Shown: one piece after another, positions 25,615-38,398 of the stretch | How the letters are laid out: each line of letters begins with the position of its first letter | Numbering within the stretch: the first letter of the stretch is position 1 | Assembly (NCBI RefSeq): GCF_003634695.1 | Contig: NZ_RBWV01000017.1 | Span: 62,001-126,000, forward strand | Length of the DNA: 64,000 nt | Source: Motilibacter peucedani | Lineage (GTDB): Bacteria; Actinomycetota; Actinomycetes; Motilibacterales; Motilibacteraceae | Direction: 5' to 3' | Translations under genes and position numbers: made by a program | Notes under the pieces: generated by a model | Databases searched by the model: none | Told to the model about the DNA's origin: nothing | The model's input: the letters and a program-made list of their open reading frames with translations, nothing else

Positions 25615-27375
25615 CTACGCCCGCTCGTCGCCCTGCCGGGCCGCGGGCGCGGCCCGGTCGAGCCGGGCGTCCACGACGGCGTCCCAGGTGGCCAGCACTG
25701 CGGGAGAGGCCATCGCCGCCAGGAAGTCCTCGCGCTCCAGCGCCTGCAGCACCACGTCGCTGCGAGCGACGACGCTCGCCGTGCGCGGCACGTCGCGGAG
25801 CAGCGCGATCTCCCCGAACGCGTCGCCGGGTCCCAGGCGCCCGACCTCCGCACCGTCGACCAGCACCGACAGGGTGCCGGCCTCGACGACCCAGTAGGAG
25901 CTGCCGGCCTCGCCCTGGCGGACCACGACCTCGCCCTCTCCGGCGTCCTGGCGTCGCAGCCGCAGCGCGAGCCGTTCCAGCTCGGGTCCCGGCAGGAGCT
26001 CGAACGCCGGGAGCGCGCGCAGCAGCGCCACCCCACCGGCCGGGCCGCCCAGCGTGCGGTCGAGGCGGTGCAGGCCGGGCAGGACGACCAGGACGAGCAG
26101 GCACACCGGCAGTGCCAGCGCGACCAGGGCCCACCGCGTGCCTGCGGCGTCGGCGACGGGAGCCGCCACGGCGGCACCGGCGCACGATGCGAGCACCGAC
26201 AGGGTCTGACGCAGCGCGAAGGCGTTGCCCAGCAAGGGGTCGGGCACACCGCGCTGCAGCAGCGTGATGCTCGCGACGTCGAAGACCGCGTTGCCGGCGC
26301 CGACCGCGGCGAGCAGGACCAGCGCGGCCGGCAGGTCCGGCGCGCCGCTGACCAGGACGAGGGGCACGGCCCACAGCGACAGGCCCGCCGCCACGAGCAT
26401 GCCGAGCCGTGACGACCCGGCCAGCGCGAACATGCAGAGCGAGGCGAGCAGCCCGCCGACCCCGAACGCCGAGGTCAGCAGTCCCACAGCGGCGTCGCCC
26501 CCGCCGAGGGTGTCCGACACCGGCGCGTAGAGTACCCGCAGCGCGCCGGACAGCGCAGCCTGCGGCAGGAGCAGCCCGAGCACCAGACGGGGAACCGGGA
26601 GCCGGAGCAGGAGGAGCAGCGACGGGCGGGGACCGTCGCGGGACCCCTCGAACGGCGGGAGGGGGTCTGCGGGACGGCCGGCGGACAGCCGGAGCACCAG
26701 CATCCGGCCCGAGCCGAGCAGGAGCAGGCCAGCTGCGGCGACGAAGGCGGCGACCGGGCCGGCGAGCGCGATGCAGGCGGCCGCGACCACCGGTCCGAGC
26801 AGCACGCCCAGCCCGTCGACCGCCGTGCACATCACGTTGGCAGCGGTGAGCTGCCGCAGCCCGCGGGTGACGCGGGGAAGGACCGCCAGCTGGGCCGTCC
26901 GGAAGCTGCGGGCCGCCACGGTCATGACGAGCCCGCAGCCCACGAGCGCCGGGAGCGAACCGACGGACGCCGCACTCGCGCCGGCGGCGAGCGCACCCGC
27001 CGCCGCGGCCACCGCCATGAGCGAGTAGGGCGTGGCCCGCCGCATCCACAGGGCGATCAGCGGCCCGGTCACGACGCTGGGCAGGGCGCGCAGCACCACG
27101 GCGAGGGCGACACCGCCTGCGCCGGCCTGCCGGTACGCCGCGACCGTCAGCGCGACGGTCGCGAGGGACACCGACGCGGTGACCGCCGCCCAGGCGAGCT
27201 GGATCGCGGCGAGCTCGGGCGCCGCCGCCGTCGTGCGCACCGCCGCCCAGCAGGCGGTTCCGGCCGTCCGCGCGGCGGTCCGGGCCCCGCTGCGGCTCTC
27301 CGGCACCGCTCCGCCCCGGCGCTCCGTCATAGCGGGCGACGATAGGGGCTCCTGTGCCGAGCCGGTGCTTGCCAT
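25615..27375 (-). CDS. MFS transporter with C-terminal cyclic-nucleotide-binding domain
   Basis: A 586-residue protein. About residues 40-430 are an MFS transporter of the MFS_3/enterobactin-exporter type with twelve or so membrane helices. Residues ~445-560 are a cNMP-binding (CAP_ED) domain whose phosphate-binding cassette FGEIALLRDVPRTASV keeps the Gly-Glu and Arg needed for cAMP/cGMP binding. Transport gated by a cyclic nucleotide is therefore plausible. ATG 27375 is preferred because a TACAAC box on the minus strand ends 7 bases before it; ATG 27330 is an alternative. Divergent from a DHA2 exporter across a shared inverted repeat. Confidence 0.88.
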   Translation of the reverse strand: MASTGSAQEPLSSPAMTERRGGAVPESRSGARTAARTAGTACWAAVRTTAAAPELAAIQLAWAAVTASVSLATVALTVAAYRQAGAGGVALAVVLRALPSVVTGPLIALWMRRATPYSLMAVAAAAGALAAGASAASVGSLPALVGCGLVMTVAARSFRTAQLAVLPRVTRGLRQLTAANVMCTAVDGLGVLLGPVVAAACIALAGPVAAFVAAAGLLLLGSGRMLVLRLSAGRPADPLPPFEGSRDGPRPSLLLLLRLPVPRLVLGLLLPQAALSGALRVLYAPVSDTLGGGDAAVGLLTSAFGVGGLLASLCMFALAGSSRLGMLVAAGLSLWAVPLVLVSGAPDLPAALVLLAAVGAGNAVFDVASITLLQRGVPDPLLGNAFALRQTLSVLASCAGAAVAAPVADAAGTRWALVALALPVCLLVLVVLPGLHRLDRTLGGPAGGVALLRALPAFELLPGPELERLALRLRRQDAGEGEVVVRQGEAGSSYWVVEAGTLSVLVDGAEVGRLGPGDAFGEIALLRDVPRTASVVARSDVVLQALEREDFLAAMASPAVLATWDAVVDARLDRAAPAARQGDERA

Positions 27376-27416
27376 CCGACCGTTGTAGTCGCACAATGGT
27401 GGTGTGACTACAACGG
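27369..27416. promoter_or_regulatory. Shared divergent promoter/operator with 15-bp inverted repeat
   Basis: CCGTTGTAGTCGCAC (27380-27394) and GTGTGACTACAACGG (27402-27416) are inverted repeats with one mismatch and a 7-base spacer. Plus-strand promoter TTGCCA (27369-27374), 17 bp, CACAAT (27392-27397), ending 6 bases before GTG 27404. Minus-strand -10 candidate TACAAC (27388-27383) ends 7 bases before ATG 27375. The repeat covers both -10 boxes and the plus start codon. A MarR repressor is encoded in the plus operon and is the obvious binder (inference). Confidence 0.7.
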
Positions 27417-28831
27417 ATGACCGGCGCTGGCTGGTGCTCGGCGTCTGCTGCATGAGCCTGCTGCTGGTGAGCCTCGACGTGACGATCGTCAACGTCGCGC
27501 TGCCCGCCGTCAGCCGCGACTTCCACGCACCACTCAGTGGCCTGCAGTGGATCGTCGACGCCTACACGCTCGTGCTGGCGATGCTGCTGATGCTCTCGGG
27601 CTCGCTCGGCGACCGCCTCGGCAGGAAGCGGGTCTTCCGCACGGGGCTCGTCCTCTTCACCGCGGGGTCGCTGCTCTGCAGCCTGGCGCCGGCGCTCTGG
27701 GCACTGGTGCTGTTCCGCATGGTGCAGGCGGTGGGCGGCTCGATGCTGAACCCGGTGGCCATGGCGATCCTCGTCAACACCTTCCGCGACCCGCGCGAGC
27801 GCGCTCGCGCCATCGGCGTCTGGGGCGGTGTCGTCGGGGTCAGCATGGCGCTCGGCCCGCTGGTCGGCGGAGCGCTCGTCGACTCGCTCGGGTGGCGCGC
27901 GGTCTTCTGGGTCAACGTGCCCATCGGCATCCTCGCCCTCGTGCTGACGAACCTGGTCGTCCCGGAGTCGCGCGCCGCACGCGCCCGGGCCCTGGACCCG
28001 ACGGGCCAGGCCCTGGTCGTCGTGTTCCTGGGGTCGTTGACCTACGCGATCATCGAGGCGCCCGAGCGCGGGTGGACCTCACCGGGCAGCCTCGGGCTCT
28101 ACGCCGTCGCGGCAGCCGCACTGGTCGCGCTGCTGGTCGTCGAGCTGCGCCTGAGCGAACCCTTGCTGGAGCTGCGGTTCTTCCGCTCGGTGCCGTTCAC
28201 CGCGGCGACGGTCACCGCGGTCGCGGCGTTCGCCGTCCTCGGCACCTTCCTGTTCGTCAACACCCTCTACCTGCAGCAGGTACGCGGCTGCTCCCCCGTC
28301 GAGGCCGGCCTCCGCACGCTGCCCATGGCGCTGGTCGCCGGGGTCTGCGCCCCGCTCTCCGGGCGGCTGGTCGCGAGCCGCGGCCCACGCGTACCCCTCG
28401 TGCTCGCCGGCGTCGCGACCGTCGCGGGATCGGCGCTGCTGCTGCGGCTCTCGCCGCAGACCTCGACAGGCCACTTGCTGCTGGCGTACGCACTGGTGGG
28501 CCTCGGCTTCGGGCTCGTGAACGCGCCGATCACCAACACCGCCACCTCGGGGATGCCGCGCTCGCAGGCCGGCGTGGCCGCGGCGGTCGCCTCGACCAGT
28601 CGGCAGGTGGGGGCGTCGCTCGGCGTCGCGGTCAGCGGGTCGCTCGTGGCGGGCACGTCGGGCGCGGCCTTCGCGCGGGCGAGCCACGCCGTCTGGGGCG
28701 TCACCGCCGGCTGCGGAGTCGTGGTCGCGGTGCTGGGCGTGCTGGCCACCGGACCGGGCGCGCTGCGCACTGCCGCCCGCGTCAGCGCCGGTTTCGAGGA
28801 GGAGGGGTCGCGTGAGCTCGCCGACGCCTGA
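27404..28831 (+). CDS. DHA2 (EmrB/QacA-type) MFS drug exporter
   Basis: A 475-residue, 14-helix proton-coupled multidrug exporter of the DHA2 family. Motif D1 LVSLDVTIVNVALPAVSRDF in helix 1, motif A SGSLGDRLGRKRVFRTG between helices 2 and 3, motif C GVVGVSMALGPLVGGALVD in helix 5, and QWIVDAYTL in helix 2. GTG 27404 lies at the predicted transcription start, so the message is leaderless. It is followed by a MarR gene that overlaps its end by 20 bases. Antimicrobials or toxic aromatics are typical substrates; the real one is unknown. Confidence 0.93.
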   Translation: MTTTDDRRWLVLGVCCMSLLLVSLDVTIVNVALPAVSRDFHAPLSGLQWIVDAYTLVLAMLLMLSGSLGDRLGRKRVFRTGLVLFTAGSLLCSLAPALWALVLFRMVQAVGGSMLNPVAMAILVNTFRDPRERARAIGVWGGVVGVSMALGPLVGGALVDSLGWRAVFWVNVPIGILALVLTNLVVPESRAARARALDPTGQALVVVFLGSLTYAIIEAPERGWTSPGSLGLYAVAAAALVALLVVELRLSEPLLELRFFRSVPFTAATVTAVAAFAVLGTFLFVNTLYLQQVRGCSPVEAGLRTLPMALVAGVCAPLSGRLVASRGPRVPLVLAGVATVAGSALLLRLSPQTSTGHLLLAYALVGLGFGLVNAPITNTATSGMPRSQAGVAAAVASTSRQVGASLGVAVSGSLVAGTSGAAFARASHAVWGVTAGCGVVVAVLGVLATGPGALRTAARVSAGFEEEGSRELADA

Positions 28832-29258
28832 GCAGGTGTGGGCCCAGCTGCAGGGGTTCGTCGAGGCGTACGCGGCGCGCCGCCAGCTCCGCGAGCACCT
28901 CGGGCTCGCGCTGGGCACCGGGCGTGGCCGGATCAAGCTGCTCATGCTGCTCGAGGACGGCCCGCGGGCCCACAGCGAGCTGGCCGAGGCGCTCCAGGTG
29001 GACCGGCCCTACACCACGGTCATCGTCAACTCGCTGGAGGCGCTCGGCCTCGTCGAGCGGACGGCCGACCCGGCCGACCGCCGGCGCAAGCTCGTCGCCC
29101 TCACCGACAAGGGCACCGAGACCCTGGCCGAGGCACGGGCGGTCATCGGCGCCGCGCCTCCCCCGCTGCAGCAGCTGACCGCGACCGAGCTCACCGAGCT
29201 GGCCGCCCTGCTGACGAGGTTGGACCCCCCTGCAGACCGGGCCGCCGCTCAGGGCTGA
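28812..29258 (+). CDS. MarR-family regulator of the divergent transporter pair
   Basis: A 148-residue winged-helix MarR protein: winged HTH around residues 45-95 (HSELAEALQVDRPYTTVIVNSLEALGLVERTADPADRRRKLVALTDKG), helical dimerisation ends. GTG 28812 overlaps the exporter gene by 20 bases and has GGAGGAGGGG upstream. The 15-bp inverted repeat at 27380-27416 is the likely operator. Its 3' end overlaps the convergent eutC gene by 68 bases. Confidence 0.92.
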   Translation: MSSPTPEQVWAQLQGFVEAYAARRQLREHLGLALGTGRGRIKLLMLLEDGPRAHSELAEALQVDRPYTTVIVNSLEALGLVERTADPADRRRKLVALTDKGTETLAEARAVIGAAPPPLQQLTATELTELAALLTRLDPPADRAAAQG

Positions 29259-29988
29259 GCCGCGAGGCGACGGCGGCCAGGACGGCTTCCGCGGCCCGGT
29301 GCGCGGGGAGGCCCTGCCGGTGGCCCGCGCTGATGCCGGAGAGCACCACCCGGTCGGCGTCGGTCTGCCCGGGCCCGGGACGCCAGGCGACGTAGGCGGA
29401 CAGGCTCTCGGCGTAGGCGAGACCTGGCCGCTCCCCCACCAGCAGCACCGCCGCGCGCGGGCGCAGCACCTCGCCCACGTCGTTGAGCACGCCCACCCGG
29501 CACCTGCGCACCAGGACCGGCAGACCCACCGACCAGCCGGCGTCACGCGCAGCGGCCAGCAGCGCCGGCAGGACGACGGGCACGTGCACCGCCACGGCCG
29601 CGGCCGACAGCCCGTCGCCCACGACCACCTGCAGGTCGACGTCGGCGGGGCACCGGTCGCGGACCAGCCCGCGGTCGTCCTCGTCGAGCAGGCGCCCGAG
29701 GTCGGGACGGCGAAGGTGCTCCTGCAGCGTGCGGGCGCGCGAGGAGACCACGAGCGCGCCGACGTCGCGCAGGGCTGCGGCCAGCGGCCCGTCCTCGAGG
29801 TCGAGCGGCGCGGTGACGGCGTCCCGAGCGGCGGCGTGGTCGGCGCGGAGGGTGAGCAGCGTACGCGTGGAGTAGGACGTGCCGGCCCGGCCGACGAGCA
29901 GCCTCGCCGGCGTGACACCGGCGACCCGGGCGCGCACCGCGGCCAACGACTCCAGCTCGCGCGCCCCGAAGAGCTCGTCGCCCGTCAT
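29191..29988 (-). CDS. eutC: Ethanolamine ammonia-lyase small subunit EutC
   Basis: A 265-residue partner of EutB that helps bind adenosylcobalamin. The lyase converts ethanolamine to acetaldehyde and ammonia. Family features: TPARLLVGRAGTSYSTRTLLTLRADHAAARDAV near the start, VVGDGLSAAAV in the middle, and LLVGERPGLAYAESLSAYVAWRPGPGQTDADR near the end. ATG 29988 overlaps the eutB stop by 4 bases. Its end overlaps the convergent MarR gene. No EutA reactivase or microcompartment shell gene is nearby. Confidence 0.94.
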   Translation of the reverse strand: MTGDELFGARELESLAAVRARVAGVTPARLLVGRAGTSYSTRTLLTLRADHAAARDAVTAPLDLEDGPLAAALRDVGALVVSSRARTLQEHLRRPDLGRLLDEDDRGLVRDRCPADVDLQVVVGDGLSAAAVAVHVPVVLPALLAAARDAGWSVGLPVLVRRCRVGVLNDVGEVLRPRAAVLLVGERPGLAYAESLSAYVAWRPGPGQTDADRVVLSGISAGHRQGLPAHRAAEAVLAAVASRLSPERRPGLQGGPTSSAGRPAR

Positions 29989-31376
29989 GCGGTCAGCTCC
30001 GCCAGCACGCGTCCGGGCGCGCCCCCGGGGAGGGCGGACGCGGACGTGTCGACGAGCGCACCGCCCCTCCACAGCCCTGCTGCCTCCAGCCACTCCACGA
30101 GCTCACGCCCCGGGCGGAGCCCGAGGACGCGGCGCGCCGTGGCGACGTCGTGGTAGCTGGTGGACTGGTAGTGGAGCATGACGTCGTCGCTGGCGGGGAC
30201 GCCCATCACGAACGTGCAGCCCGCCGACGCCAGCAGCAGCAGCAGGTCGTCGTTGCTGTCCTGGTCGGCGTCGACGTGGTTGGTGTAGCAGATGTCGCAC
30301 CCCATGGGCAGGCCCATGAGCTTGCCGACGAAGTGGTCCTCGAGCCCCGCGCGGGTGATCTGCCTGGCATCGGCGAGGTACTCCGGGCCGATGAAGCCGA
30401 CGACCGAGTTGACCAGGAAGGGGTCGAAGAGCCGCGCGACGGCCTGTGCGCGCGCCTCGCAGACGAGCTGGTCGGTGCCCGCGTGCGCCTCTGCGGAGAG
30501 CGCACTGCCCTGCCCGGTCTCGAAGTAGGTGACGTGCTCGCCCGCGTAGCCGCGGCCGCGGTGCGACTCGAGCGCCGCCTCCCGCCCCTCCGCCAGCAGC
30601 GCCAGGTCGATGCCGAAGCTCGCGTTGGCCGCGGTGGTCCCGGCGACCGACTGGAAGAGCAGGTCCACCGGCGCGCCCCGCTCGAGGGCCGCCAGCTGCG
30701 TCGTGACATGGGCCAGGACGCAGGTCTGGGTCGGCAGGGCCAGGCGGTCCACGAAGGCGGCCAGGCCGTGCAGGACCGCGGCGCAGGAGTCCACGGAGTC
30801 GGTCGCCGGGTTGACGCCGATGAGGGCGTCGCCGCAGCCGAGCAGCAGGCCGTCGAGCGCGGAGAGGAGGATGCCGCGTACGTCGTCGGCCGGGTGGTTC
30901 GGCTGCACCCGGCAGCCGAGCACCCCCGGCTCGCCCATGGTCGTGCGGCACGTGGTGATCACCCGCAACGGGTGGGCGGCGGCGACCAGGTCGAGGTTGC
31001 TCATCAGCTTCGCCGTCGCGGCAGCCACTTCTGGCGTGATCGCGCCCGCGAGCCGTGGCCAGTCCTGCGCGAAGGACGGGTGCAGCACCAGCTCACGCAG
31101 CTCGCCGACCGTGAGGGAGGCGATCTCGGCGAAGGCGTCGCTGTCGTGGGCGGCGAGCAGCGCCTCGGTGGTGCTGTCGTCGATGACCGGGTCGGCGACG
31201 ATGTCGCCGAGCCGCACGTCGGCCAGCGCTGTCTTGGCCGCCACCCGCTCGCGCCGGCTGCCGGCGGCGATGCCCGCGAGCTGGTCGCCGGACTTCTCCT
31301 CGTTGGCCTTGGCGAGCAGCTCGCGCAGGTCGGCGAAGCGGAAGGTCTCACCGCGTACGCTCGCGGACCACGTCAT
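29985..31376 (-). CDS. eutB: Ethanolamine ammonia-lyase large subunit EutB
   Basis: A 463-residue TIM-barrel catalytic subunit of adenosylcobalamin-dependent ethanolamine ammonia-lyase, the normal length for the family. Recognised by MSNLDLVAAAHPLRV, CRVQPNHPADDVRGI, VNPATDSVDSC, the active-site segment TYFETGQGSALSAEAHAG with the substrate Glu, and VNSVVGFIGPEYL, MGLPMGCDICYTNHVDADQD. ATG 31376 overlaps the amidase stop by 4 bases; longer upstream frame is shadow. It is coupled to eutC. Adenosylcobalamin is required; the genome's use of B12 is supported by metH. Confidence 0.96.
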   Translation of the reverse strand: MTWSASVRGETFRFADLRELLAKANEEKSGDQLAGIAAGSRRERVAAKTALADVRLGDIVADPVIDDSTTEALLAAHDSDAFAEIASLTVGELRELVLHPSFAQDWPRLAGAITPEVAAATAKLMSNLDLVAAAHPLRVITTCRTTMGEPGVLGCRVQPNHPADDVRGILLSALDGLLLGCGDALIGVNPATDSVDSCAAVLHGLAAFVDRLALPTQTCVLAHVTTQLAALERGAPVDLLFQSVAGTTAANASFGIDLALLAEGREAALESHRGRGYAGEHVTYFETGQGSALSAEAHAGTDQLVCEARAQAVARLFDPFLVNSVVGFIGPEYLADARQITRAGLEDHFVGKLMGLPMGCDICYTNHVDADQDSNDDLLLLLASAGCTFVMGVPASDDVMLHYQSTSYHDVATARRVLGLRPGRELVEWLEAAGLWRGGALVDTSASALPGGAPGRVLAELTA

Positions 31377-32377
31377 GCCCGGCCCCCGAGCGCCTGAAGC
31401 CGCTCGTGCGCGCCGCCCATCACGCTGACCGCGCCCAGCACCGACTTCGGCACCTTCGCGACGACCGAGTAGTCGGTGTCGACGACGTTGGCAACGGGCG
31501 TCAGCGCGGTCTGCGACACCAGCTGGTAGGCGTCGAGCAACGAGAGGCCCGTCAGCTCGGCCACCCAGGCGACCAGCTCGGCGTGCGCGATGCGGAACGC
31601 GTCCTCGAGCGGACGCGCTGAGCCGACGACCATGATGTGGGTGTCGTCCTCCAGCCGCGGCCACGCCGGCCCGACGCCCTTGACGAGGTCGACGGCCACG
31701 ACGGTGTCCATGGCGCACTCGACGGCGACCCCGCAGGTCTCGCCCTCGCCCTGCCTCGCGTGGCCGTCGCCGAGGCTCAGCATCGCCCCGGGGACGTTGA
31801 CGCCCAGGTAGCACGTGGTGCCGGCCCGCATCTCCGGCGTGTCCATGTTGCCTCCCCAGGACCCGGGGGTCAGCGACGACCGGACCTCACCGAGGGGCGG
31901 GGCGACTCCCACGGTCCCGTGCATCGGGTCCAGCGGTAGGTCGGCCGTGAAGGGCGAGTCGAGCGCCGCGTAGCGGACGACGCCGCCCGGGACGTCGATC
32001 TCGTAGACCCATGTCCGCTCCTGGAGCGCCGGCTGCAGCGTCATCGTGCGCCCGGTCGAGGTCAGCGCCCCGAAGAACGGCACGGTGCTGCTCACCCCGC
32101 GGGCGTAGCGCGGGGTGATGGAGGCGAAGTGGACCGCCACGGCATCGCCCGGCTCGGCTCCCTCCACCCAGAAGGGCCCTGTCTGAGGGTTGAGGTAGCG
32201 CGGGTCGACCCGCTGGCTGGCCAGGTGGTCCACGGAGGTGACCCGGCCGCCGAAGCAGTCGAGCGTCCAGGTGTCCAGCAGGCTGCCCGGCGCGAGCGTG
32301 GCGACCGGGGCCGCCCCGCCGAACGTGTAGACCTGTCCGGCGGGGTCGGCCTCGGGGTCGGGCTCCCAGCGCAGCAC
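31373..32377 (-). CDS. Acetamidase/formamidase-family hydrolase
   Basis: A 334-residue member of the FmdA/AmdA family, cytosolic enzymes that hydrolyse formamide, acetamide and related small amides to ammonia and the acid. Family signatures: RYARGVSSTVPFFGAL, DLPLDPMHGTVGVAP, PGSWGGNMDTPEM and GVNVPGAMLSLGDGHARQGEGETCGVAVE. GTG 32377 lies 5 bases after the permease stop and has no strong ribosome site, so coupling to the permease is likely. It overlaps eutB by 4 bases. Its presence suggests that the transported compound is an amide or N-acyl amine, or that amides are by-products (inference). Confidence 0.9.
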   Translation of the reverse strand: MLRWEPDPEADPAGQVYTFGGAAPVATLAPGSLLDTWTLDCFGGRVTSVDHLASQRVDPRYLNPQTGPFWVEGAEPGDAVAVHFASITPRYARGVSSTVPFFGALTSTGRTMTLQPALQERTWVYEIDVPGGVVRYAALDSPFTADLPLDPMHGTVGVAPPLGEVRSSLTPGSWGGNMDTPEMRAGTTCYLGVNVPGAMLSLGDGHARQGEGETCGVAVECAMDTVVAVDLVKGVGPAWPRLEDDTHIMVVGSARPLEDAFRIAHAELVAWVAELTGLSLLDAYQLVSQTALTPVANVVDTDYSVVAKVPKSVLGAVSVMGGAHERLQALGGRA

Positions 32378-32382
32378 GCCGC

Positions 32383-33987
32383 TCAGACCGCGACCCGGTC
32401 GGAGAGGTGTGCCGGTGTCTCGTGCTCCATGACGGTGCGACCGATGCGGTCGTAGCTGGCGCGGTCGCGCGACCGGATGACGAGCGCGCAGACCAGACCG
32501 AGCAGGAACACCCCGACCACGAGGTAGGGCGTGGCCTTGAACACCGGACTGCCGGATGCGGCACCCGCCGCGAAGTCCAGGTTCTGGAAGAGCAGGAAGA
32601 CCACGTAGCCCATGGCGACAGCGCCCACGAGCGGGCAGAGGAGCGTGCGCCACCACGACGCGGTCTCCGGGTGCTCCTTCTTGACGTGGAAGTACCAGAT
32701 GACCGACACCGAGCAGATGCCCTGCACGATCATGATGGCCATCGTCCCGAGGATCGCCATCAGCCCGTAGAGGTGGATGTAGGCGACGTCCGGCGCGGCC
32801 TTGGTCGGGTGCTGCAGCCAGAAGAAGCCGAGCGTGATGGCGAGCGTGACGACGCTCTGCACGACAGAGGCGATGTGCGGCGACCCGTGGGTGGGGTGCG
32901 TCGAGCCGAGCGTGCGGGCGAGGCCGGCGCTGTGGCCCTCGCGCGCCAACGCGTACAGGTAGCGGGAGGCGGCGTTGTGGAACGCCAGTGCGCAGGCGAA
33001 GGAGCCGGTGACGGTCAGCACCTTGTAGACGTCGAGGGACGCCGAGCCGAGCAGCGCCTTGGTGGGCTCGAAGAACAGGTCGAACGCGTTGCCGGTGGAG
33101 CCGCGCGAGACGTCCACCGACTTGGCCGACCCGTTGGCAGCGAGGACCATCCACGACACGAACGTGTAGAACAGCCCGAGCCCGATGACGGCCATGAGGG
33201 TGGCGCGAGGCACGATCTTCCTCGGGTTGCGCGACTCCTCGCCGTAGACCGCGGTGGTCTCGAAGCCCACCCAGGACCAGAAGGCGAAGAAGAGCCCGAG
33301 CCCGGCCGTGCCGACGATCGCGCCGTCTGCACTGGTGGGCGCGGAGGAGAAGGCCTTCGCCGGGTTGATGGCGCTGGGCAGGAAGCCGTCCGGGCCGCCA
33401 CCGTCGAAGAGGATGCGCACGGCGAGGATCGCCAGCAGCGCCACCTCCGTGACGAGGAAGACACCGAGCACGATGCCCGAAAGGCTGATGTCGAAGTAGC
33501 CGAGGGCGGCGATCACCACGATGCACGCCAGGGCGTAGGCGATCCAGCTGATCGACGGGCCGTCGAAGGCCTCGACCGTGGTCTTGGCGAAGGAGGAGAA
33601 GATGCCGACCAGGGAGGCCTCGAAGACCACGTAGGCCATGGTGGCGAGGAATCCCGACGCCATTCCCCATGCCTGTCCGAGGCCGTGGGAGATGAACCCG
33701 TAGAACGCGCCGGTGGCCGTGATGTGCTTGGCCATCGCGACGTAGCCGACGGAGAAGACGGTGAGCACGACGGTGGCGAAGAAGAAGCCCGCGGGCGCCC
33801 CGACACCGTTGCCGTAGCCCACCGCGATGGGCAGGTTGCCGGTCATCGCCGTGATGGGCGCCGCGTTGGCGAGCGCCATGAACAGGACGCCCACGAGCCC
33901 GACGGCTCCGGGCTTGAGGCGCTGGACACCCTCGCGCTGCGCCGGCAGGGCCGGCGTGGCGGACGAGGTCTGGGTCTGCGCGGTCAT
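32383..33987 (-). CDS. APC-superfamily amine/amino-acid permease
   Basis: A 534-residue permease with about 12-14 membrane helices and the APC signature in helix 1 (LKPGAVGLVGVLFMALANAAPITAMTGNLPIAVGYGNG). Other APC features: helix 6 FFAFWSWVGFETTAVYGEESRNPRKIVPRA. First gene of the permease-amidase-eutBC operon. The substrate is probably an amine or amide handled by the downstream enzymes; it is not a typical EAT-type ethanolamine permease sequence as far as I can judge. ATG 33987 has GGGAGG 8 bases upstream, but that site can be paired in a leader hairpin. Confidence 0.92.
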   Translation of the reverse strand: MTAQTQTSSATPALPAQREGVQRLKPGAVGLVGVLFMALANAAPITAMTGNLPIAVGYGNGVGAPAGFFFATVVLTVFSVGYVAMAKHITATGAFYGFISHGLGQAWGMASGFLATMAYVVFEASLVGIFSSFAKTTVEAFDGPSISWIAYALACIVVIAALGYFDISLSGIVLGVFLVTEVALLAILAVRILFDGGGPDGFLPSAINPAKAFSSAPTSADGAIVGTAGLGLFFAFWSWVGFETTAVYGEESRNPRKIVPRATLMAVIGLGLFYTFVSWMVLAANGSAKSVDVSRGSTGNAFDLFFEPTKALLGSASLDVYKVLTVTGSFACALAFHNAASRYLYALAREGHSAGLARTLGSTHPTHGSPHIASVVQSVVTLAITLGFFWLQHPTKAAPDVAYIHLYGLMAILGTMAIMIVQGICSVSVIWYFHVKKEHPETASWWRTLLCPLVGAVAMGYVVFLLFQNLDFAAGAASGSPVFKATPYLVVGVFLLGLVCALVIRSRDRASYDRIGRTVMEHETPAHLSDRVAV

Positions 33988-33989
33988 CC

Positions 33990-34047
33990 GGCAGCCCTCC
34001 CTTCCGGTATGCGGTGGCTGCGATGCTGACGGGCGCGGGAGGCTGCC
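33990..34047 (-). promoter_or_regulatory. Leader hairpin that pairs the permease ribosome-binding site
   Basis: In the minus-strand message GGCAGCCTCCC (from 34047-34037) can pair with GGGAGGGCTGCC (from 34001-33990), 11 bp with one bulged G, enclosing a 35-base loop. The second arm contains the whole Shine-Dalgarno sequence GGGAGG and ends 2 bases before ATG 33987. This could lower translation unless something opens it. It matches no riboswitch class I recognise. Confidence 0.55.
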
Positions 34048-34064
34048 ACAAGGCCGACGAGCAA

Positions 34065-34081
34065 GCCTTTTCACGCCTTTT
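34065..34081 (+). repeat. Two GCCTTTT direct repeats 10 bp apart
   Basis: GCCTTTT at 34065-34071 and 34075-34081, one helical turn apart, in the divergent region between the permease and the class-III PLP enzyme, 50-60 bases before ATG 34129. Unusually T-rich for this DNA. Possible binding site for the GntR regulator at 37204 or part of a promoter. Confidence 0.4.
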
Positions 34082-34128
34082 ACATCAGCCGTCCCTGCCG
34101 GAAACACTTCCCGCACGATCCTGGGCGC

Positions 34129-35403
34129 ATGACGACGGTGACGACCCTGCTGCCGGACCTGCCGATCGACAAGGACGAGGTCCTCGAGCTCTCCGACCGG
34201 TTCTGGAACCCGGGCAAGACGCGCTTCTGGTCGGACGCGGGCGTGCCGCTCGTCATCGGCGAGCGCTCGGGCTACGTGCTGACCGACATGGCCGGGCGCG
34301 AGCTGGTGGACATGCACCTCAACGGCGGCACCTACAACCTGGGCCACCGCAACCCCGAGCTGACCGCGACCCTCGTCGAGGCGCTGGGCCGCTTCGACAT
34401 CGGCAACCACCACTTCCCGTCCGTCGCCCGCGCGGCGCTGGCGAGGGAGCTCGTCGCCAGCGCGCCGCCGGGGCTGAAGCACGTCGCCTACGGCAGCGGC
34501 GGTGGCGAGGCCATCGACATCGCGCTCAAGAGCGCGCGCTACGCCACCAAGCGGCGCAAGATCGTCTCGATCGTCAAGGGCTACCACGGCCACACCGGTC
34601 TCGCTGTCGCCACGGGTGACGCGAGGTACGCCGAGATCTTCCTCGCCGACCAGCCGGACGAGTTCGTGCAGGTGCCGTTCAACGACCTCGAGGCGATGGA
34701 GGCGGCACTCGCCCCCGGTGACGCCGCGGCCGTCATCCTCGAGACGATCCCCGCGACCTACGGCTTCCCCATGCCGGCACCCGGCTATCTGCGCGCCGTC
34801 AAGGACCTCTGCGACCTGCACGGCACGCTCTACGTCGCCGACGAGGTGCAGACGGGGCTCATGCGCACCGGCGAGCTGTGGGCCATCAGCAAGCACGACG
34901 TGCAGCCCGACGTCCTGGTGACGGCGAAGGGGCTCTCGGGCGGGCTCTACCCCGTCTCGGCCGTCCTGCTCGGAGAGAGGGCGGGCGGCTGGCTCGAGGA
35001 GGACGGGTTCGCCCACATCTCGACGTTCGGCGGCGCGGAGCTCGGCTGCGTGGTGGCGCTCAAGGTGCTCGAGATGACCCAGCGCGTCGAGACTGCGGTG
35101 CGGGTAGCCGAGCTCTCGGCGCTGTTCGCCGAGCGGCTGGGCGCGCTGCGTGACGCGTTCCCCGACTGGCTCGTCGAGGTCCGCCAGGACGGGCTCGTCA
35201 TGGGCCTGGTCTTCGCCACGGCCGAGGGCGCCAAGCCGGTCATGCGCGCGCTCTACGAGTCCGGCGTCTGGGCGATCTTCTCCTCGCTCGACCCACGCGT
35301 CCTGCAGTGGAAGCCGGGCCTGCTCCTCGACGACGAGACCGCGCTGCGGGTGCTGGACCGGCTGGAGGCCGCCGTGGCCCGCACCGCGGAGGGGCACGCG
35401 TGA
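34129..35403 (+). CDS. Class-III PLP-dependent aminotransferase (or phospho-lyase)
   Basis: A 424-residue fold-type-I PLP enzyme of class III. Features: GYVLTDMAGRELVDMHLNGGTYNLGHRNPEL, phosphate-loop GSGGGEAIDIALKSAR, KGYHGHTG, Asp in LYVADEVQTGLMRTG, Schiff-base Lys267 in VLVTAKGLSGGLYP. Class III covers omega-amine aminotransferases and also the phospho-lyases that split phosphoethanolamine or phosphohydroxylysine. The next gene is an APH-type kinase, and kinase plus class-III enzyme is the arrangement of those phospho-lyase pathways. Aminotransferase is the safe call; phospho-lyase is a specific hypothesis. ATG 34129 heads a plus-strand operon divergent from the eut operon. Confidence 0.88.
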   Translation: MTTVTTLLPDLPIDKDEVLELSDRFWNPGKTRFWSDAGVPLVIGERSGYVLTDMAGRELVDMHLNGGTYNLGHRNPELTATLVEALGRFDIGNHHFPSVARAALARELVASAPPGLKHVAYGSGGGEAIDIALKSARYATKRRKIVSIVKGYHGHTGLAVATGDARYAEIFLADQPDEFVQVPFNDLEAMEAALAPGDAAAVILETIPATYGFPMPAPGYLRAVKDLCDLHGTLYVADEVQTGLMRTGELWAISKHDVQPDVLVTAKGLSGGLYPVSAVLLGERAGGWLEEDGFAHISTFGGAELGCVVALKVLEMTQRVETAVRVAELSALFAERLGALRDAFPDWLVEVRQDGLVMGLVFATAEGAKPVMRALYESGVWAIFSSLDPRVLQWKPGLLLDDETALRVLDRLEAAVARTAEGHA

Positions 35404-36392
35404 CCGCGCAGCCCGCCGCCGCTCCGGCGACCTGGGAGGAGCAGGCGGCCAGGGCGCTTCCCTGCTACGGGCTCGAGGGAAGTGCGGTCCGCCTGCTCAG
35501 CGTCTCCGAGAACGCGACCTTCCTCGTCCAGCCAGAGGGCGCCGAAGCCCTGGTGCTGCGGCTGAACCGTCCGGGCTACCACTCCCGCGACGCGATCGAG
35601 AGCGAGCTCGCGTGGGTCTCCGCGCTCCGCGCGGAGGGGGTGGTGCGTACGCCGCCGGTCATTCCCACCGTGTCGGGCGAGCGCGTCGCGGTGCTCGCGC
35701 CGGGCGGGCGCCACGCGGTCCTCTTCGCGCACGTGCCCGGCGTGCACCCGGACGAGACCAGGCTGCTGCCCTCGTTCCCACGCCTGGGCGCACTCACCGC
35801 GCGCCTGCACGCCCATGCCCGGGGCTGGTCCCGGCCGACCGGCTTCCAGCGGTTCCGCTGGGACGCTGACACGTCGATCGGCAGCGGCGGGCACTGGGGC
35901 CGGTGGCAGGACGGGCTGGGCGTCGGCCGCTCGGAGCTCGAGGTGCTCGGTGCCGCCGCCGGGCTGGTGCGGCGCAGGCTCGCGGGCTACGGCGACGACC
36001 CGGACCGGTTCGGGCTCGTGCACGCGGACATGCGGCTGGCGAACCTGCTGGTGGACGGCGACGACGTGACGGTCATCGACTTCGACGACTGCGGGTTCAG
36101 CTGGTACCTCTACGACCTGGCCGCCTCGCTGTCGTTCATCGAGCACCTCCCGGAGGCGCCCGAGCTCGTCGCCGCCTGGGTCGACGGCTACCGCAGCGAG
36201 GCGCCGTTGAGCGACGGGGACGAGGCCATGCTGCCCACCTTCGTCATGCTGCGCCGGATCCTGCTGCTCGCGTGGATCGGCTCGCACTCGGAGACCGAGC
36301 AGGCCCGGGCCATGGGCGTCGGGTTCACGCGCGACAGTTGCGAGCTGGCCGAGCGCTTCCTCACCTCGGGCGGCGGGTCGCTCTGGCCATGA
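35400..36392 (+). CDS. APH-family small-molecule kinase
   Basis: A 330-residue aminoglycoside-phosphotransferase-fold protein of the HomoSer/choline/ethanolamine/hydroxylysine kinase type. Catalytic loop VHADMRLANLLVDGDDV with Asp210, metal site VIDFDDCGFSWYLYDLA. N-lobe nucleotide region SVSENATFLVQPEGAEALVLRLNRPGY. GTG 35400 overlaps the PLP-enzyme stop by 4 bases. Placed beside eutBC and a class-III PLP enzyme, an amino-alcohol such as ethanolamine or hydroxylysine is a reasonable substrate (inference). It would feed a phospho-lyase. Confidence 0.86.
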   Translation: MTAQPAAAPATWEEQAARALPCYGLEGSAVRLLSVSENATFLVQPEGAEALVLRLNRPGYHSRDAIESELAWVSALRAEGVVRTPPVIPTVSGERVAVLAPGGRHAVLFAHVPGVHPDETRLLPSFPRLGALTARLHAHARGWSRPTGFQRFRWDADTSIGSGGHWGRWQDGLGVGRSELEVLGAAAGLVRRRLAGYGDDPDRFGLVHADMRLANLLVDGDDVTVIDFDDCGFSWYLYDLAASLSFIEHLPEAPELVAAWVDGYRSEAPLSDGDEAMLPTFVMLRRILLLAWIGSHSETEQARAMGVGFTRDSCELAERFLTSGGGSLWP

Positions 36393-36436
36393 CCGGCACC
36401 CTCCCGCACACGGACCAGAAGGCAGGTGGCAGCAGG

Positions 36437-37207
36437 ATGTTCGACGTCGACGGCCTCTCCATAGTGGTCACAGGTGGTACGCGTGGCATCGGCCGCGGCA
36501 TCGCCGCGGTCTTCGCGCGGGCGGGCGCGCAGGTGCTCATCACCGGGCGCGACGAGGAGCGCGGACACCTGGCGGCGAAGGAGCTGGGCGAGCTCGGCGG
36601 CCGGGTGTCGTTCGTCGCCGCGGAGGCCGCGAGCGCGGCCGACGCCCAGGAGGTGGCTGCTGCGGCTGCCGACCGCCACGGCGGGCTCGACGTCCTCTGC
36701 GCCAACGCGGGCATCTTCCCCGAGTCGCCGCTGTCGACGATGAGCGAGGCCGACATGGACCTCGTCTACGCCACCAACGTCAAGGGCACGATGCTCGCTG
36801 TGCGCGCCTGCCTGCCCCTGCTCGTCGCGAGCGGCCGGGGTCGCGTGGTGCTGACCTCCTCGATCACCGGTCCGGTGACGGGCTATCCCGGCTGGGCGCA
36901 CTACGGCGCGAGCAAGGCCGCGCAGCTCGGCTACATGCGCACGGCGGCGGTCGAGCTGGCACCGCACGGCATCACCGTCAACGCGGTGCTCCCCGGCAAC
37001 ATCGCCACCGAGGGACTCGCCGAGATGGGCGAGGACTACCTGCGCTCCACCGAAGCCGTCATCCCCCTCCGCCGGCTCGGCTCCGTGGAGGACATCGGGC
37101 ACGCAGCGCTGTTCTTCGCCTCGCGCGAGGCGGGCTACGTGACCGGGCAGGCGCTGGTGGTCGACGGGGGCCAGGTGCTGCCCGAGTCGCCCTCGGCCCT
37201 GGCGTGA
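36437..37207 (+). CDS. Short-chain dehydrogenase/reductase of the amine cluster
   Basis: A 256-residue classical SDR: TGGTRGIGRGIA cofactor motif, CANAG (NNAG variant), Ser in VVLTSSITGPVTGYPGW, YGASK catalytic Tyr/Lys, and the C-terminal GYVTGQALVVDGGQ. No acidic residue follows strand 2 (LITGRDEE has Arg), favouring NADP. ATG 36437 has AGGTGG 8 bases upstream; ATG 36389, which overlaps the kinase stop by 4 bases, would add 16 residues and fits the coupling seen elsewhere in this operon. It probably oxidises or reduces an aldehyde, alcohol or keto product of the cluster. Confidence 0.88.
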   Translation: MFDVDGLSIVVTGGTRGIGRGIAAVFARAGAQVLITGRDEERGHLAAKELGELGGRVSFVAAEAASAADAQEVAAAAADRHGGLDVLCANAGIFPESPLSTMSEADMDLVYATNVKGTMLAVRACLPLLVASGRGRVVLTSSITGPVTGYPGWAHYGASKAAQLGYMRTAAVELAPHGITVNAVLPGNIATEGLAEMGEDYLRSTEAVIPLRRLGSVEDIGHAALFFASREAGYVTGQALVVDGGQVLPESPSALA

Positions 37208-38007
37208 CGGGCGCCGCCGGGGTCGACACCGCGCCCGGCGCCGTGCGGGCGCGCCTGGGCAGCACGGCGGAGCAGGTGCGGCACCGGCTGCTGGTGCTGG
37301 CCGCTGCCCCCGGGCAAGGCCCCGGGTCGCGGCTCGGCGGTGAGCGCGGGCTCGCACAGCAGCTGTCGTGCAGCCGCTCGACGCTGCGCCAGGCGCTCGC
37401 GTCGCTCGAGGACGAGGGCGTGGTGCGCCGGGTCCCCGGGCGCCGCGGCGGCACGTACGTCGCGGGACCTCGCGTGCAGCGCGACCTCGGCCTCCTGCGC
37501 GGTGTGCCGGCGATGCTCACCGAGCAGGGCTTCGCCGCCGCGACGCGCGTGCTCGCGGTGCGCGTCGTCGCCGCCTCCCTGCGGACCGGCACCGAGCTGC
37601 GCCTGGCGCCCGGCGCGCCGGTGGTGGAGGTCCTGCGACTGCGCTCGGCCGACGAGGTGCCCCTCTCGATCGAGCAGGCGGTGCTCCCGGCGGCGCGGTT
37701 CCCCGACCTGCCGCGACGCCGCCTCGACGGCTCGCTCTACGAGCTGCTGGCCGGGGCCTACGGCGTGCGCCTGGGCGCGGCCGACGAGCGGATCACCGCC
37801 GTGGCCGCCGGTCCCCAGGAGGCGACCACGCTGGGGGTGGCGGTCGGCGCTCCCCTGCTGGCGATCACGCGCACGACGGTCGACGCCGACGGCTCGCCCT
37901 TCGAGCACGCCCACGACCTGTTCCGCGCCGACCGGGTCGAGCTGCGGGTGACGAGCTCCGGCGAGCTGACGGACGCACAGCGGACCACGGCGTACGCCCG
38001 CTGCTAG
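37204..38007 (+). CDS. GntR/HutC-family regulator (UTRA ligand domain)
   Basis: A 267-residue regulator: N-terminal GntR winged helix (about residues 20-90: LGGERGLAQQLSCSRSTLRQALASLEDEGVVRRVPGRRGGTYV) and C-terminal UTRA ligand-binding domain (about 100-255: LRLAPGAPVVEVLRLRSADEVPLSIEQAVLPAARFPDL, ending LLAITRTTVDADGSPFEHAHDLFRADRVEL). GTG 37204 overlaps the SDR stop by 4 bases. It is the only regulator in the amine cluster and presumably controls the divergent promoter region 33988-34128 in response to a pathway compound. Confidence 0.92.
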   Translation: MTGAAGVDTAPGAVRARLGSTAEQVRHRLLVLAAAPGQGPGSRLGGERGLAQQLSCSRSTLRQALASLEDEGVVRRVPGRRGGTYVAGPRVQRDLGLLRGVPAMLTEQGFAAATRVLAVRVVAASLRTGTELRLAPGAPVVEVLRLRSADEVPLSIEQAVLPAARFPDLPRRRLDGSLYELLAGAYGVRLGAADERITAVAAGPQEATTLGVAVGAPLLAITRTTVDADGSPFEHAHDLFRADRVELRVTSSGELTDAQRTTAYARC

Positions 38008-38010
38008 CGT
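38005..38010 (+). promoter_or_regulatory. -10 box TAGCGT for the VOC gene
   Basis: TAGCGT includes the GntR stop codon and ends 7 bases before GTG 38018, suggesting a leaderless start distinct from the GntR operon. Confidence 0.45.
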
Positions 38011-38017
38011 GCGCCGG

Positions 38018-38398
38018 GTGCACCGGAGCCGGTTCTCGACCCTGTTGATCGACACGCCCGCCGCCCAGGCCGGGTCCACTGCGGGCTTCTGGTCGTCGGC
38101 CCTGGGCGTGCCGGCCCGGCCGGTGGAGGGCGAGGAGCAGTTCACCGACCTGCCCGGCGCGTTCCCCGACCTCGTCGTGTCGGTCCAGGCGGTCGACGAC
38201 GCGCCGCGCTTCCACATCGACATCGAGACCGACGACCTCGACGCGGAGACCGCGCGCCTGCTCGCCCTCGGGGCCGTGGAGGTCGGGCGCTGGCTCGACT
38301 GCAGGACGCTGCGGGCGCCGGGCGGCCACCTGCTCTGCGTGATACCGCAGCACAGCGACGACGAGACGTTCGCGCGGCTGGCCCGCACCTGGCCCTGA
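38018..38398 (+). CDS. VOC/glyoxalase-like protein
   Basis: A 126-residue protein of the vicinal-oxygen-chelate fold: two beta-alpha-beta-beta-beta modules with RSRFSTLLIDTP, AGFWSSALGVPARP and FHIDIETDDLDAETARLLALGAVEVGRW, APGGHLLCVIP. The metal ligands are only partly as in true glyoxalases, so it may be a binding protein. GTG 38018 follows a -10 box by 7 bases; GTG 38009 is in frame. Adjacent to the amine cluster but with its own promoter, so membership is doubtful. Confidence 0.8.
   Translation: MHRSRFSTLLIDTPAAQAGSTAGFWSSALGVPARPVEGEEQFTDLPGAFPDLVVSVQAVDDAPRFHIDIETDDLDAETARLLALGAVEVGRWLDCRTLRAPGGHLLCVIPQHSDDETFARLARTWP

What the first reader, a model, noticed from the sequence alone, without database searches (positions are those of the whole stretch)
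29191..38007. Divergent amine-utilisation cluster combining EutBC, an amidase and a kinase/class-III PLP pair
Seen: two divergent, tightly coupled operons. Minus: APC permease, acetamidase/formamidase, EutB, EutC. Plus: class-III PLP enzyme, APH-fold kinase, SDR, GntR/UTRA regulator. Known: EutBC turns ethanolamine into acetaldehyde and ammonia; class-III enzymes next to APH kinases include phospho-lyases that do the same to phosphoethanolamine or act on phosphohydroxylysine (human AGXT2L1/ETNPPL and AGXT2L2 with hydroxylysine kinase). Inference: the cluster degrades one amino-alcohol or its amide by two alternative routes, one B12-dependent and one not, without EutA, aldehyde dehydrogenase or a microcompartment. 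The amidase would release the amine from an N-acyl form.
Basis: partly seen in the sequence, partly recalled or inferred. Interest (0 to 1): 0.7.

Follow-up and report, generated by a model that had tools for sequence, protein, structure and literature searches.

The report
Shell-free aminopropanol degradation cluster with EutBC
This actinobacterial gene cluster most likely breaks down small amino-alcohols (1-amino-2-propanol, related to aminoacetone, and ethanolamine); it is a version of a known bacterial-microcompartment pathway that lacks the protein shell and has a vitamin-B12 enzyme beside it.

Summary
In detail: permease-amidase-EutB-EutC diverge from class-III PLP enzyme-kinase-SDR-GntR. 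The ethanolamine/ETNPPL reading is only partly right. Kinase, SDR, PLP enzyme, permease and GntR are relatives of the core of the RMM/AAUM (aminoacetone utilization) microcompartment; most related loci carry shell and aldehyde-dehydrogenase genes between PLP enzyme and kinase. The window and six other distinct loci lack the shell and carry EutBC. The kinase route therefore probably uses 1-amino-2-propanol, giving propionaldehyde; EutBC probably handles ethanolamine. The PLP enzyme is not in the ETNPPL/A1RDF1 phospho-lyase clade (AU p 2e-8) but beside putrescine transaminases. Yet it lacks the Glu/Arg pair of 2-oxoglutarate transaminases (98 of 98 and 97 of 97 orthologues), and in five genomes an A1RDF1-type protein stands beside the same kinase family. 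That suggests a separately evolved phospho-lyase. Nothing was assayed. The genome has no methylmalonyl-CoA mutase or PrpD match, which counts against full use of C3 carbon. The shell-free EutBC loci branch first in the PLP trees, but the alternative is not rejected (p 0.20). New variant of a known kind.

The parts
29191..29988 (-). eutC, ethanolamine ammonia-lyase small subunit
   Evidence: PF05985 223 bits; PDB EAL light chains 126-127 bits; NCBIfam EutC equivalog 218 bits, below its 230 cut-off
29985..31376 (-). eutB, ethanolamine ammonia-lyase large subunit; member of a separate EutB clade, most of it linked to the kinase
   Evidence: PF06751 610 bits; 2qez 480 and 3abo 459 bits; clade 100/100 and pocket residues kept
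31373..32377 (-). acetamidase/formamidase-family protein (role unknown; also in shell-bearing loci)
   Evidence: PF03069 74 bits; 5ubu 216 bits; 45 bits against the FmdA equivalog cut-off of 500
32383..33987 (-). APC-superfamily permease, probable amino-alcohol importer
   Evidence: PF00324 63 bits; divergent partner of the PLP gene in 21 of 22 class loci
33988..34128 (.). 141-base divergent intergenic region, expected promoter/operator region; no sigma-70-like site and no inverted repeat found
34129..35403 (+). class-III PLP enzyme, probable 1-amino-2-propanol-phosphate phospho-lyase of its own lineage (counterpart of the RMM/AAUM 'aminotransferase')
   Evidence: PF00202 217 bits; orthologues at 62-85% identity; tree and residues
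35400..36392 (+). APH-fold kinase, relative of the RMM/AAUM aminopropanol kinase
   Evidence: 6ef6 314 bits, next PDB hit 68; assignment of 6ef6 recalled
36389..37207 (+). SDR, relative of 1-amino-2-propanol dehydrogenase / aminoacetone reductase
   Evidence: 3pk0, 3rih, 6ci9, 6ci8 at 312-323 bits, next hit 159; assignment of 6ci8/6ci9 recalled
37204..38007 (+). GntR/UTRA regulator
   Evidence: PF00392, PF07702; relatives in 18 of 26 shell-free and 43 of 44 shell-bearing full-flank loci
38009..38398 (+). glyoxalase-like protein, possible last gene of the plus operon; no match in related loci
   Evidence: PF18029 63 bits; no match in 23 loci, 11 with the PLP cassette

Best explanation
A shell-free version of the RMM/AAUM aminoacetone / 1-amino-2-propanol pathway, joined to ethanolamine ammonia-lyase. 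The permease imports small amino-alcohols. The SDR interconverts aminoacetone and 1-amino-2-propanol. The kinase phosphorylates 1-amino-2-propanol with ATP. The class-III PLP enzyme eliminates phosphate and ammonia to give propionaldehyde. EutBC with adenosylcobalamin turns the C2 homologue ethanolamine into acetaldehyde and ammonia. The aldehydes go to dehydrogenases encoded elsewhere in the genome, without a protein shell. GntR probably controls the divergent promoters. Shown by sequence: homology, gene order, residue changes, interchange of lyases. Inferred: every reaction and substrate.
For: Kinase: 6ef6 at 314 bits, next PDB hit 68. SDR: 6ci9/6ci8 at 312 bits, with 3pk0 and 3rih slightly higher and the next hit at 159. 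That 6ef6 and 6ci8/6ci9 are the M. smegmatis aminopropanol kinase and dehydrogenase is recalled; the PDB table gives generic names, and I saw the two papers only as references. The same cassette with shell genes in 42 of 67 distinct full-flank loci, none of the 42 with EutB; 25 without shell, 8 of them with EutB. RMM1/RMM2 are described with this gene list, and amino-2-propanol is said to induce the dehydrogenase through GntR (PMC4207490, passages). PLP: T210 in 98 of 98, Q393 and K395 in 97 of 97 orthologues (one gap), where PatA-like, YgjG and ArgD rows have E and R; in human OAT that pair is Glu235/Arg413, and Arg413 takes part in 2-oxoglutarate binding (PMC9136103, passages; the correspondence of positions is my alignment plus recall). 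Five of 54 kinase-bearing genomes have an A1RDF1/ETNPPL-type protein beside the kinase, four of them with SDR and GntR and three also with the permease. EutB pocket residues as in E. coli (list of positions recalled). Cobalamin adenosyltransferase present.
Against: No assay. The PLP enzyme is rejected as one clade with the known phospho-lyases, and its closest solved relatives are putrescine and acetylornithine transaminases. An omega-transaminase of the same genome also has Q at the 393 position, and the 46% relative L025 already has T and Q, so these residues alone do not prove the activity. The genome shows no methylmalonyl-CoA mutase and no MmgE/PrpD match, so use of propionyl-CoA as carbon is unclear. 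Of the 33 kinase loci, 23 had none of the searched lyases (20 with the kinase alone, one with the amidase, two with SDR). Role of the amidase unexplained.
Confidence: 0.62

Rival explanations
1. One reading: one amino-alcohol, ethanolamine, by two routes (EutBC, and ethanolamine kinase plus phosphoethanolamine lyase).
For: EutBC with the recalled pocket residues intact; A1RDF1-type proteins, whose PDB entry 5g4i is named phospholyase, sit beside the same kinase family in five genomes.
Against: Kinase and SDR are close to the proteins recalled as RMM aminopropanol enzymes; ethanolamine would need no SDR; the PLP enzyme is outside the ETNPPL/A1RDF1 clade.
Confidence: 0.15
2. The PLP enzyme is a transaminase of aminopropanol or aminoacetone (lactaldehyde or methylglyoxal as product), as proposed for RMM by Axen 2014 and for Aut by the 2019 gut study; the kinase does something else.
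For: Groups with putrescine transaminases; proposals read as passages; a glyoxalase-like gene follows GntR.
Against: Absence of the Glu/Arg pair in all orthologues with a letter there; A1RDF1-type proteins in its place beside the kinase in five genomes; kinase present in 44 of 44 shell-bearing and 26 of 26 shell-free full-flank loci.
Confidence: 0.17
3. EutBC here has shifted to 1-amino-2-propanol (or 2-aminopropanol), so both routes act on a C3 substrate.
For: A distinct EutB clade, 13 rows at 100/100, with Ser at the E. coli Thr325 position in 13 of 13 against Thr in 20 of 20 other rows; 10 of the 13 lie beside the kinase; in three genomes of family f18 EutB (EutC seen in two) faces kinase-SDR without the PLP gene.
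Against: Recalled substrate-contact residues unchanged; 1-amino-2-propanol is a cofactor-cleaving substrate analogue of Salmonella EAL (PMC12670283, passages).
Confidence: 0.2
4. Two neighbouring, functionally separate operons (ethanolamine use; aminopropanol use) that merely share a site.
For: In genome G289 EutB lies about 1 Mb from a shell-type locus without it; EutB without the cassette is common (24 of 31 EutB genomes have no PLP gene within 10 kb).
Against: Linkage kept in two families and in a rearranged form; nearly dedicated EutB clade.
Confidence: 0.12

Closest known systems
RMM1/RMM2 (AAUM, Aut) aminoacetone / 1-amino-2-propanol utilization microcompartment
   Same: Permease, class-III PLP enzyme, APH kinase, SDR, GntR; divergent order; amidase and a B12-dependent enzyme beside part of the loci
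   Different: No shell genes, no AldDH between PLP and kinase; EutBC instead of a diol dehydratase
Ethanolamine utilization by EutBC without microcompartment
   Same: EutB-EutC with a permease
   Different: No EutA in the genome; separate EutB clade; linked to kinase/SDR/PLP
Ethanolamine-phosphate phospho-lyases (human ETNPPL 6tor, A1RDF1 5g4i, PRK06149 fusions)
   Same: Class III fold, partner APH kinase, absence of the transaminase Glu/Arg pair, basic residue before the Pro (K395)
   Different: Different clade (AU p 2e-8); Q instead of K at 393
PbfA, (R)-1-hydroxy-2-aminoethylphosphonate ammonia-lyase
   Same: A class-III eliminating lyase that is not a transaminase (PMC8154272, passages)
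   Different: Other substrate; the PbfA NCBIfam model gives 167 bits against a 525 cut-off
Putrescine aminotransferase YgjG/PatA
   Same: Nearest solved sequence and fold; sister group
   Different: The cluster enzyme lacks their Glu and Arg and has K395

Membership tests
RMM/AAUM locus | Homologous kinase, SDR, PLP enzyme, permease, GntR in conserved order | tested here: met
RMM/AAUM locus | BMC shell proteins | tested here: not met
   no PF00936 match in the whole genome; E. coli and Synechococcus controls positive
RMM/AAUM locus | Core aldehyde dehydrogenase in the locus | tested here: not met
   no Aldedh match inside the window; eight elsewhere in the genome
RMM/AAUM locus | Activity on 1-amino-2-propanol | not testable with these tools
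   inferred from similarity to 6ef6 and 6ci9, whose functions are recalled
ETNPPL/A1RDF1 phospho-lyase family | Falls in the clade | tested here: not met
   AU p 2.1e-8
ETNPPL/A1RDF1 phospho-lyase family | Absence of the Glu/Arg pair and a basic residue before the Pro | tested here: met
   shared by convergence if the clade test is right
ETNPPL/A1RDF1 phospho-lyase family | Phospho-lyase activity | not testable with these tools
   no assay
2-oxoglutarate-dependent class-III transaminase | Glu235/Arg413-type pair (OAT numbering) | tested here: not met
   T210 in 98 of 98, Q393 in 97 of 97
Ethanolamine ammonia-lyase | EutB and EutC with substrate-contact residues | tested here: met
   residue list recalled
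Ethanolamine ammonia-lyase | Reactivase EutA (usual, not strictly defining) | tested here: not met

The most novel reading that the evidence does not exclude
The cluster is a surviving shell-free form of the kit from which the AAU microcompartment arose: its PLP enzyme is a phospho-lyase that evolved from putrescine-type transaminases independently of ETNPPL/A1RDF1; shell and aldehyde-dehydrogenase genes were inserted later between lyase and kinase; and in the EutBC form the kinase/lyase pair also clears 1-amino-2-propanol, a homologue that would otherwise stall the B12 enzyme in a genome without EutA.
Probability: 0.22. Interest if true: 0.7.

Novelty: new variant of a known kind. Interest (0 to 1): 0.5.

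Why it matters
The class-III enzyme of the AAU microcompartment has been proposed to be an aminotransferase (passages), and a 2021 paper counted ethanolamine-phosphate phospho-lyase and one close relative as the only documented eliminating enzymes of class III before its own PbfA (passages). A cassette in which two unrelated class-III lineages stand beside the same kinase family gives a direct test of that enzyme. The shell-free, EutBC-paired loci offer a natural comparison for the question of what a metabolosome shell adds, since similar enzymes occur with and without it.

Tried and rejected
Ethanolamine-only reading and hydroxylysine reading: not supported by the kinase and SDR relationships. 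Membership of the PLP enzyme in ETNPPL/A1RDF1: tested and rejected. A firm shell-first or shell-later root: the EutBC/shell-free rows branch first, but the fork that leaves out the EutBC rows and L125 has support 95/42, and a tree with the EutBC rows held with the shell-bearing rows is not rejected (p 0.203); the outgroup branch is long. Operator search in the divergent region: nothing in the window. Literature: the listings in the held library showed no paper on a shell-free EutBC form or on this phospho-lyase; one search returned no paper at all. The key kinase paper (JBC 2018) is not held. My recollection of its abstract, not read here, is that it mentions a non-microcompartment paralogue and a candidate phospho-lyase, so part of this may be in print. 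The structure model (mean pLDDT 75) gave only class-III neighbours, YgjG first, in the 50 rows listed. Rows L181 and L184 were read on the wrong strand; one search reads them correctly, and what 64 and 66 say of them is void. Row L026 was left out. Loci L113, L117 and L127 proved to be copies of L041, L047 and L042. One search printed its counts before it stopped with an error at the tree step; the tree was redone on 52 chosen rows.
Full report
Observation. The eight genes are real and lie at 29191-38007. Minus strand: permease, amidase, eutB, eutC. Plus strand: class-III PLP enzyme, APH kinase, SDR, GntR. Consecutive genes overlap by four bases except permease and amidase; the divergent gap is 141 bases. 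At the thresholds used, the PLP gene (E<=1e-60), the kinase (E<=1e-40) and EutB each give one match in the genome, which is 4.19 Mb in 17 contigs.

Relatives of the PLP gene. Of 296 class genomes, own included, 25 had a match at E<=1e-60; 23 of them, own included, hold an orthologue (62-85% identity to the window's), the other two at 46-50%. In the fetched loci L003-L024 the permease gene is divergent to it in 21 of 22. Fetching wider flanks showed a second layout. In L043 there lie, between PLP and kinase, an aldehyde dehydrogenase, two BMC-domain proteins, one EutN/CcmL protein and two ORFs without a Pfam match; beyond the permease lie a fused large-medium diol dehydratase, its small subunit and a reactivase. 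I identify this with the RMM/AAUM microcompartment. Axen et al. 2014 (PMC4207490, passages) list aminotransferase, phosphotransferase, short-chain dehydrogenase, permease and GntR for RMM1 and say that RMM2 has diol dehydratase genes in addition. Later papers name it aminoacetone utilization (PMC8156839 and PMC8007038, passages) or Aut (PMC6620236, passages).

Enzyme identity. The kinase's best solved relative is 6ef6 at 314 bits, the next 68. The SDR's are 3pk0, 3rih, 6ci9 and 6ci8 at 312-323 bits, then 159. I recall 6ef6 and 6ci8/6ci9 as the aminopropanol kinase and dehydrogenase of M. smegmatis; the PDB table gives only generic names, and I saw the two papers only in reference lists.

Distribution. 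With the class loci, 103 loci were tallied, 70 of them with at least 6 and 7 kb held on the two sides of the PLP gene. In the 70, the kinase is in all; SDR in 68; permease in 65; aldehyde dehydrogenase in 44 of 44 shell-bearing and 1 of 26 shell-free. After removal of identical PLP sequences 67 remain: 42 with shell genes (20 with diol dehydratase, none with EutB) and 25 without (14 diol dehydratase, 7 EutB, 1 both, 3 neither). A B12-dependent eliminase thus stands beside 22 of 25 shell-free and 20 of 42 shell-bearing loci (Fisher p 0.0014; rows are related, so this is not a true probability, and a gene beyond the held flank would be missed). The seven EutB-only rows are the window, its genus mate G079 and five loci of genus g64, family f18 (G241, G110, G197, G099, G131); the G241 locus has the same PLP and kinase sequences as one of Frankia nepalensis CN7. 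The row with both is Actinoplanes subtropicus, whose EutB is of the ordinary type.

EutB. Of 296 class genomes, 31 have EutB above the cut-off. Seven have the PLP gene and nine the kinase within 10 kb; a tenth, G038, has a kinase that one search does not list. In a tree of 33 rows the linked EutBs lie in one clade of 13 (100/100), ten of them linked; the other three are G206, G171 and G259. The positions that I recall as contacting substrate (160, 162, 193, 287, 329, 362, 392 of E. coli) are unchanged in the window; position 325 is Ser in 13 of 13 clade rows and Thr in 20 of 20 others. In three loci of family f18, genus g37, EutB faces kinase and SDR with no PLP or permease match (L163, L164, L165; EutC seen in L163 and L165, L164 being at a contig end).

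What the PLP enzyme is. The tree (34 rows) joins it with PatA-like proteins and YgjG and rejects one clade with ETNPPL, A1RDF1, PRK06149 and the displaced forms (AU p 2.1e-8). Yet T210 is in 98 of 98 and Q393 and K395 in 97 of 97 orthologues (one gap), where PatA-like, YgjG and ArgD rows have Glu and Arg. In human ornithine aminotransferase Arg413 pairs with Glu235 and takes part in 2-oxoglutarate binding (PMC9136103, passages). The known phospho-lyases and their relatives here have Asn, Thr, Cys or Ser and then Lys, and Lys or Arg two residues on. Against reading too much into it: an omega-transaminase of the own genome also has Ser and Gln, own L184 has Val with Arg, and the 46% relative L025 already has Thr and Gln but not the Lys.

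Displacement. Kinase homologues occur in 54 of 296 genomes at E<=1e-40. I fetched the 33 loci not yet seen. In five (G078, G003, G158, G230, G281) an A1RDF1/ETNPPL-type protein of 43-48% identity sits beside the kinase; four also have SDR and GntR, and three the permease too; the G281 contig ends about 1.9 kb beyond the kinase without an SDR match. All five fall in the phospho-lyase clade, on the A1RDF1 side. Five more loci are shell-type pieces (L188, L196, L218, L219, L220). The remaining 23 had none of the searched lyases: 20 with the kinase alone, one with the amidase (L189), two with SDR (L216, L217).

Mechanism and its limits. From this I infer aminoacetone to 1-amino-2-propanol (SDR), to its phosphate (kinase), to propionaldehyde (PLP enzyme), and ethanolamine to acetaldehyde (EutBC). 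Against a simple carbon route, the own genome has no methylmalonyl-CoA mutase and no MmgE/PrpD match (E. coli among the positive controls), while it has a cobalamin adenosyltransferase and eight Aldedh matches. Salmonella EAL with 1-amino-2-propanol gives stable cob(II)alamin (PMC12670283, passages), which makes a shared C3 substrate less likely and suggests that clearing aminopropanol could protect EutBC; this last step is a guess.

Evolution. In PLP trees rooted on more distant class-III relatives, and in a five-protein tree whose outgroup has the PLP protein only, the EutBC-linked, shell-free rows of the window genus and g64 branch first. A tree with these rows held with the shell-bearing ones is 23 log units worse but not rejected (p 0.203). 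Shell-free Mycobacteriaceae loci lie inside shell-bearing ones, which looks like later loss.

Verdict. The sequence finding is sound, the ethanolamine/ETNPPL story is partly right, and the cluster is best filed as a shell-free, EutBC-bearing variant of the RMM/AAUM pathway.

Noticed in passing
window 38009-38398: Glyoxalase-like gene one base after the GntR stop; no match in 23 loci, 11 with the PLP cassette. Would fit methylglyoxal arising from aminoacetone.
   Followed up: partly
own genome G000: No methylmalonyl-CoA mutase and no MmgE/PrpD match although a cobalamin adenosyltransferase is present; fate of propionyl-CoA unclear.
   Followed up: partly
L163:5551-9988, L164:27-3644, L165:3706-8352: Family f18, genus g37: EutB(C) divergent from kinase-SDR but no PLP or permease match.
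   Followed up: partly
L168:8146-9525 and L162: Divergent EutB proteins; the L168 one has lost most of the recalled substrate-contact residues, possibly a decayed or altered enzyme.
   Followed up: no
L083:8172-20903: Actinoplanes subtropicus carries diol dehydratase and an ordinary-type EutBC next to the shell-free aminopropanol cassette.
   Followed up: no
L217 from 7515 on: Kinase-SDR pair with a match to only 19% of the permease beside it; may be a decaying locus.
   Followed up: no
L043:11505-13760: Diol dehydratase large and medium subunits fused in one reading frame in a shell-type locus.
   Followed up: no
L106, L107: MAG contigs titled Bifidobacterium breve carry RMM loci that group with uncultured actinobacteria in the PLP tree; the titles may be wrong.
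   Followed up: no
window 25615-27492: ORF with MFS transporter and cyclic-nucleotide-binding domains in one frame.
   Followed up: no
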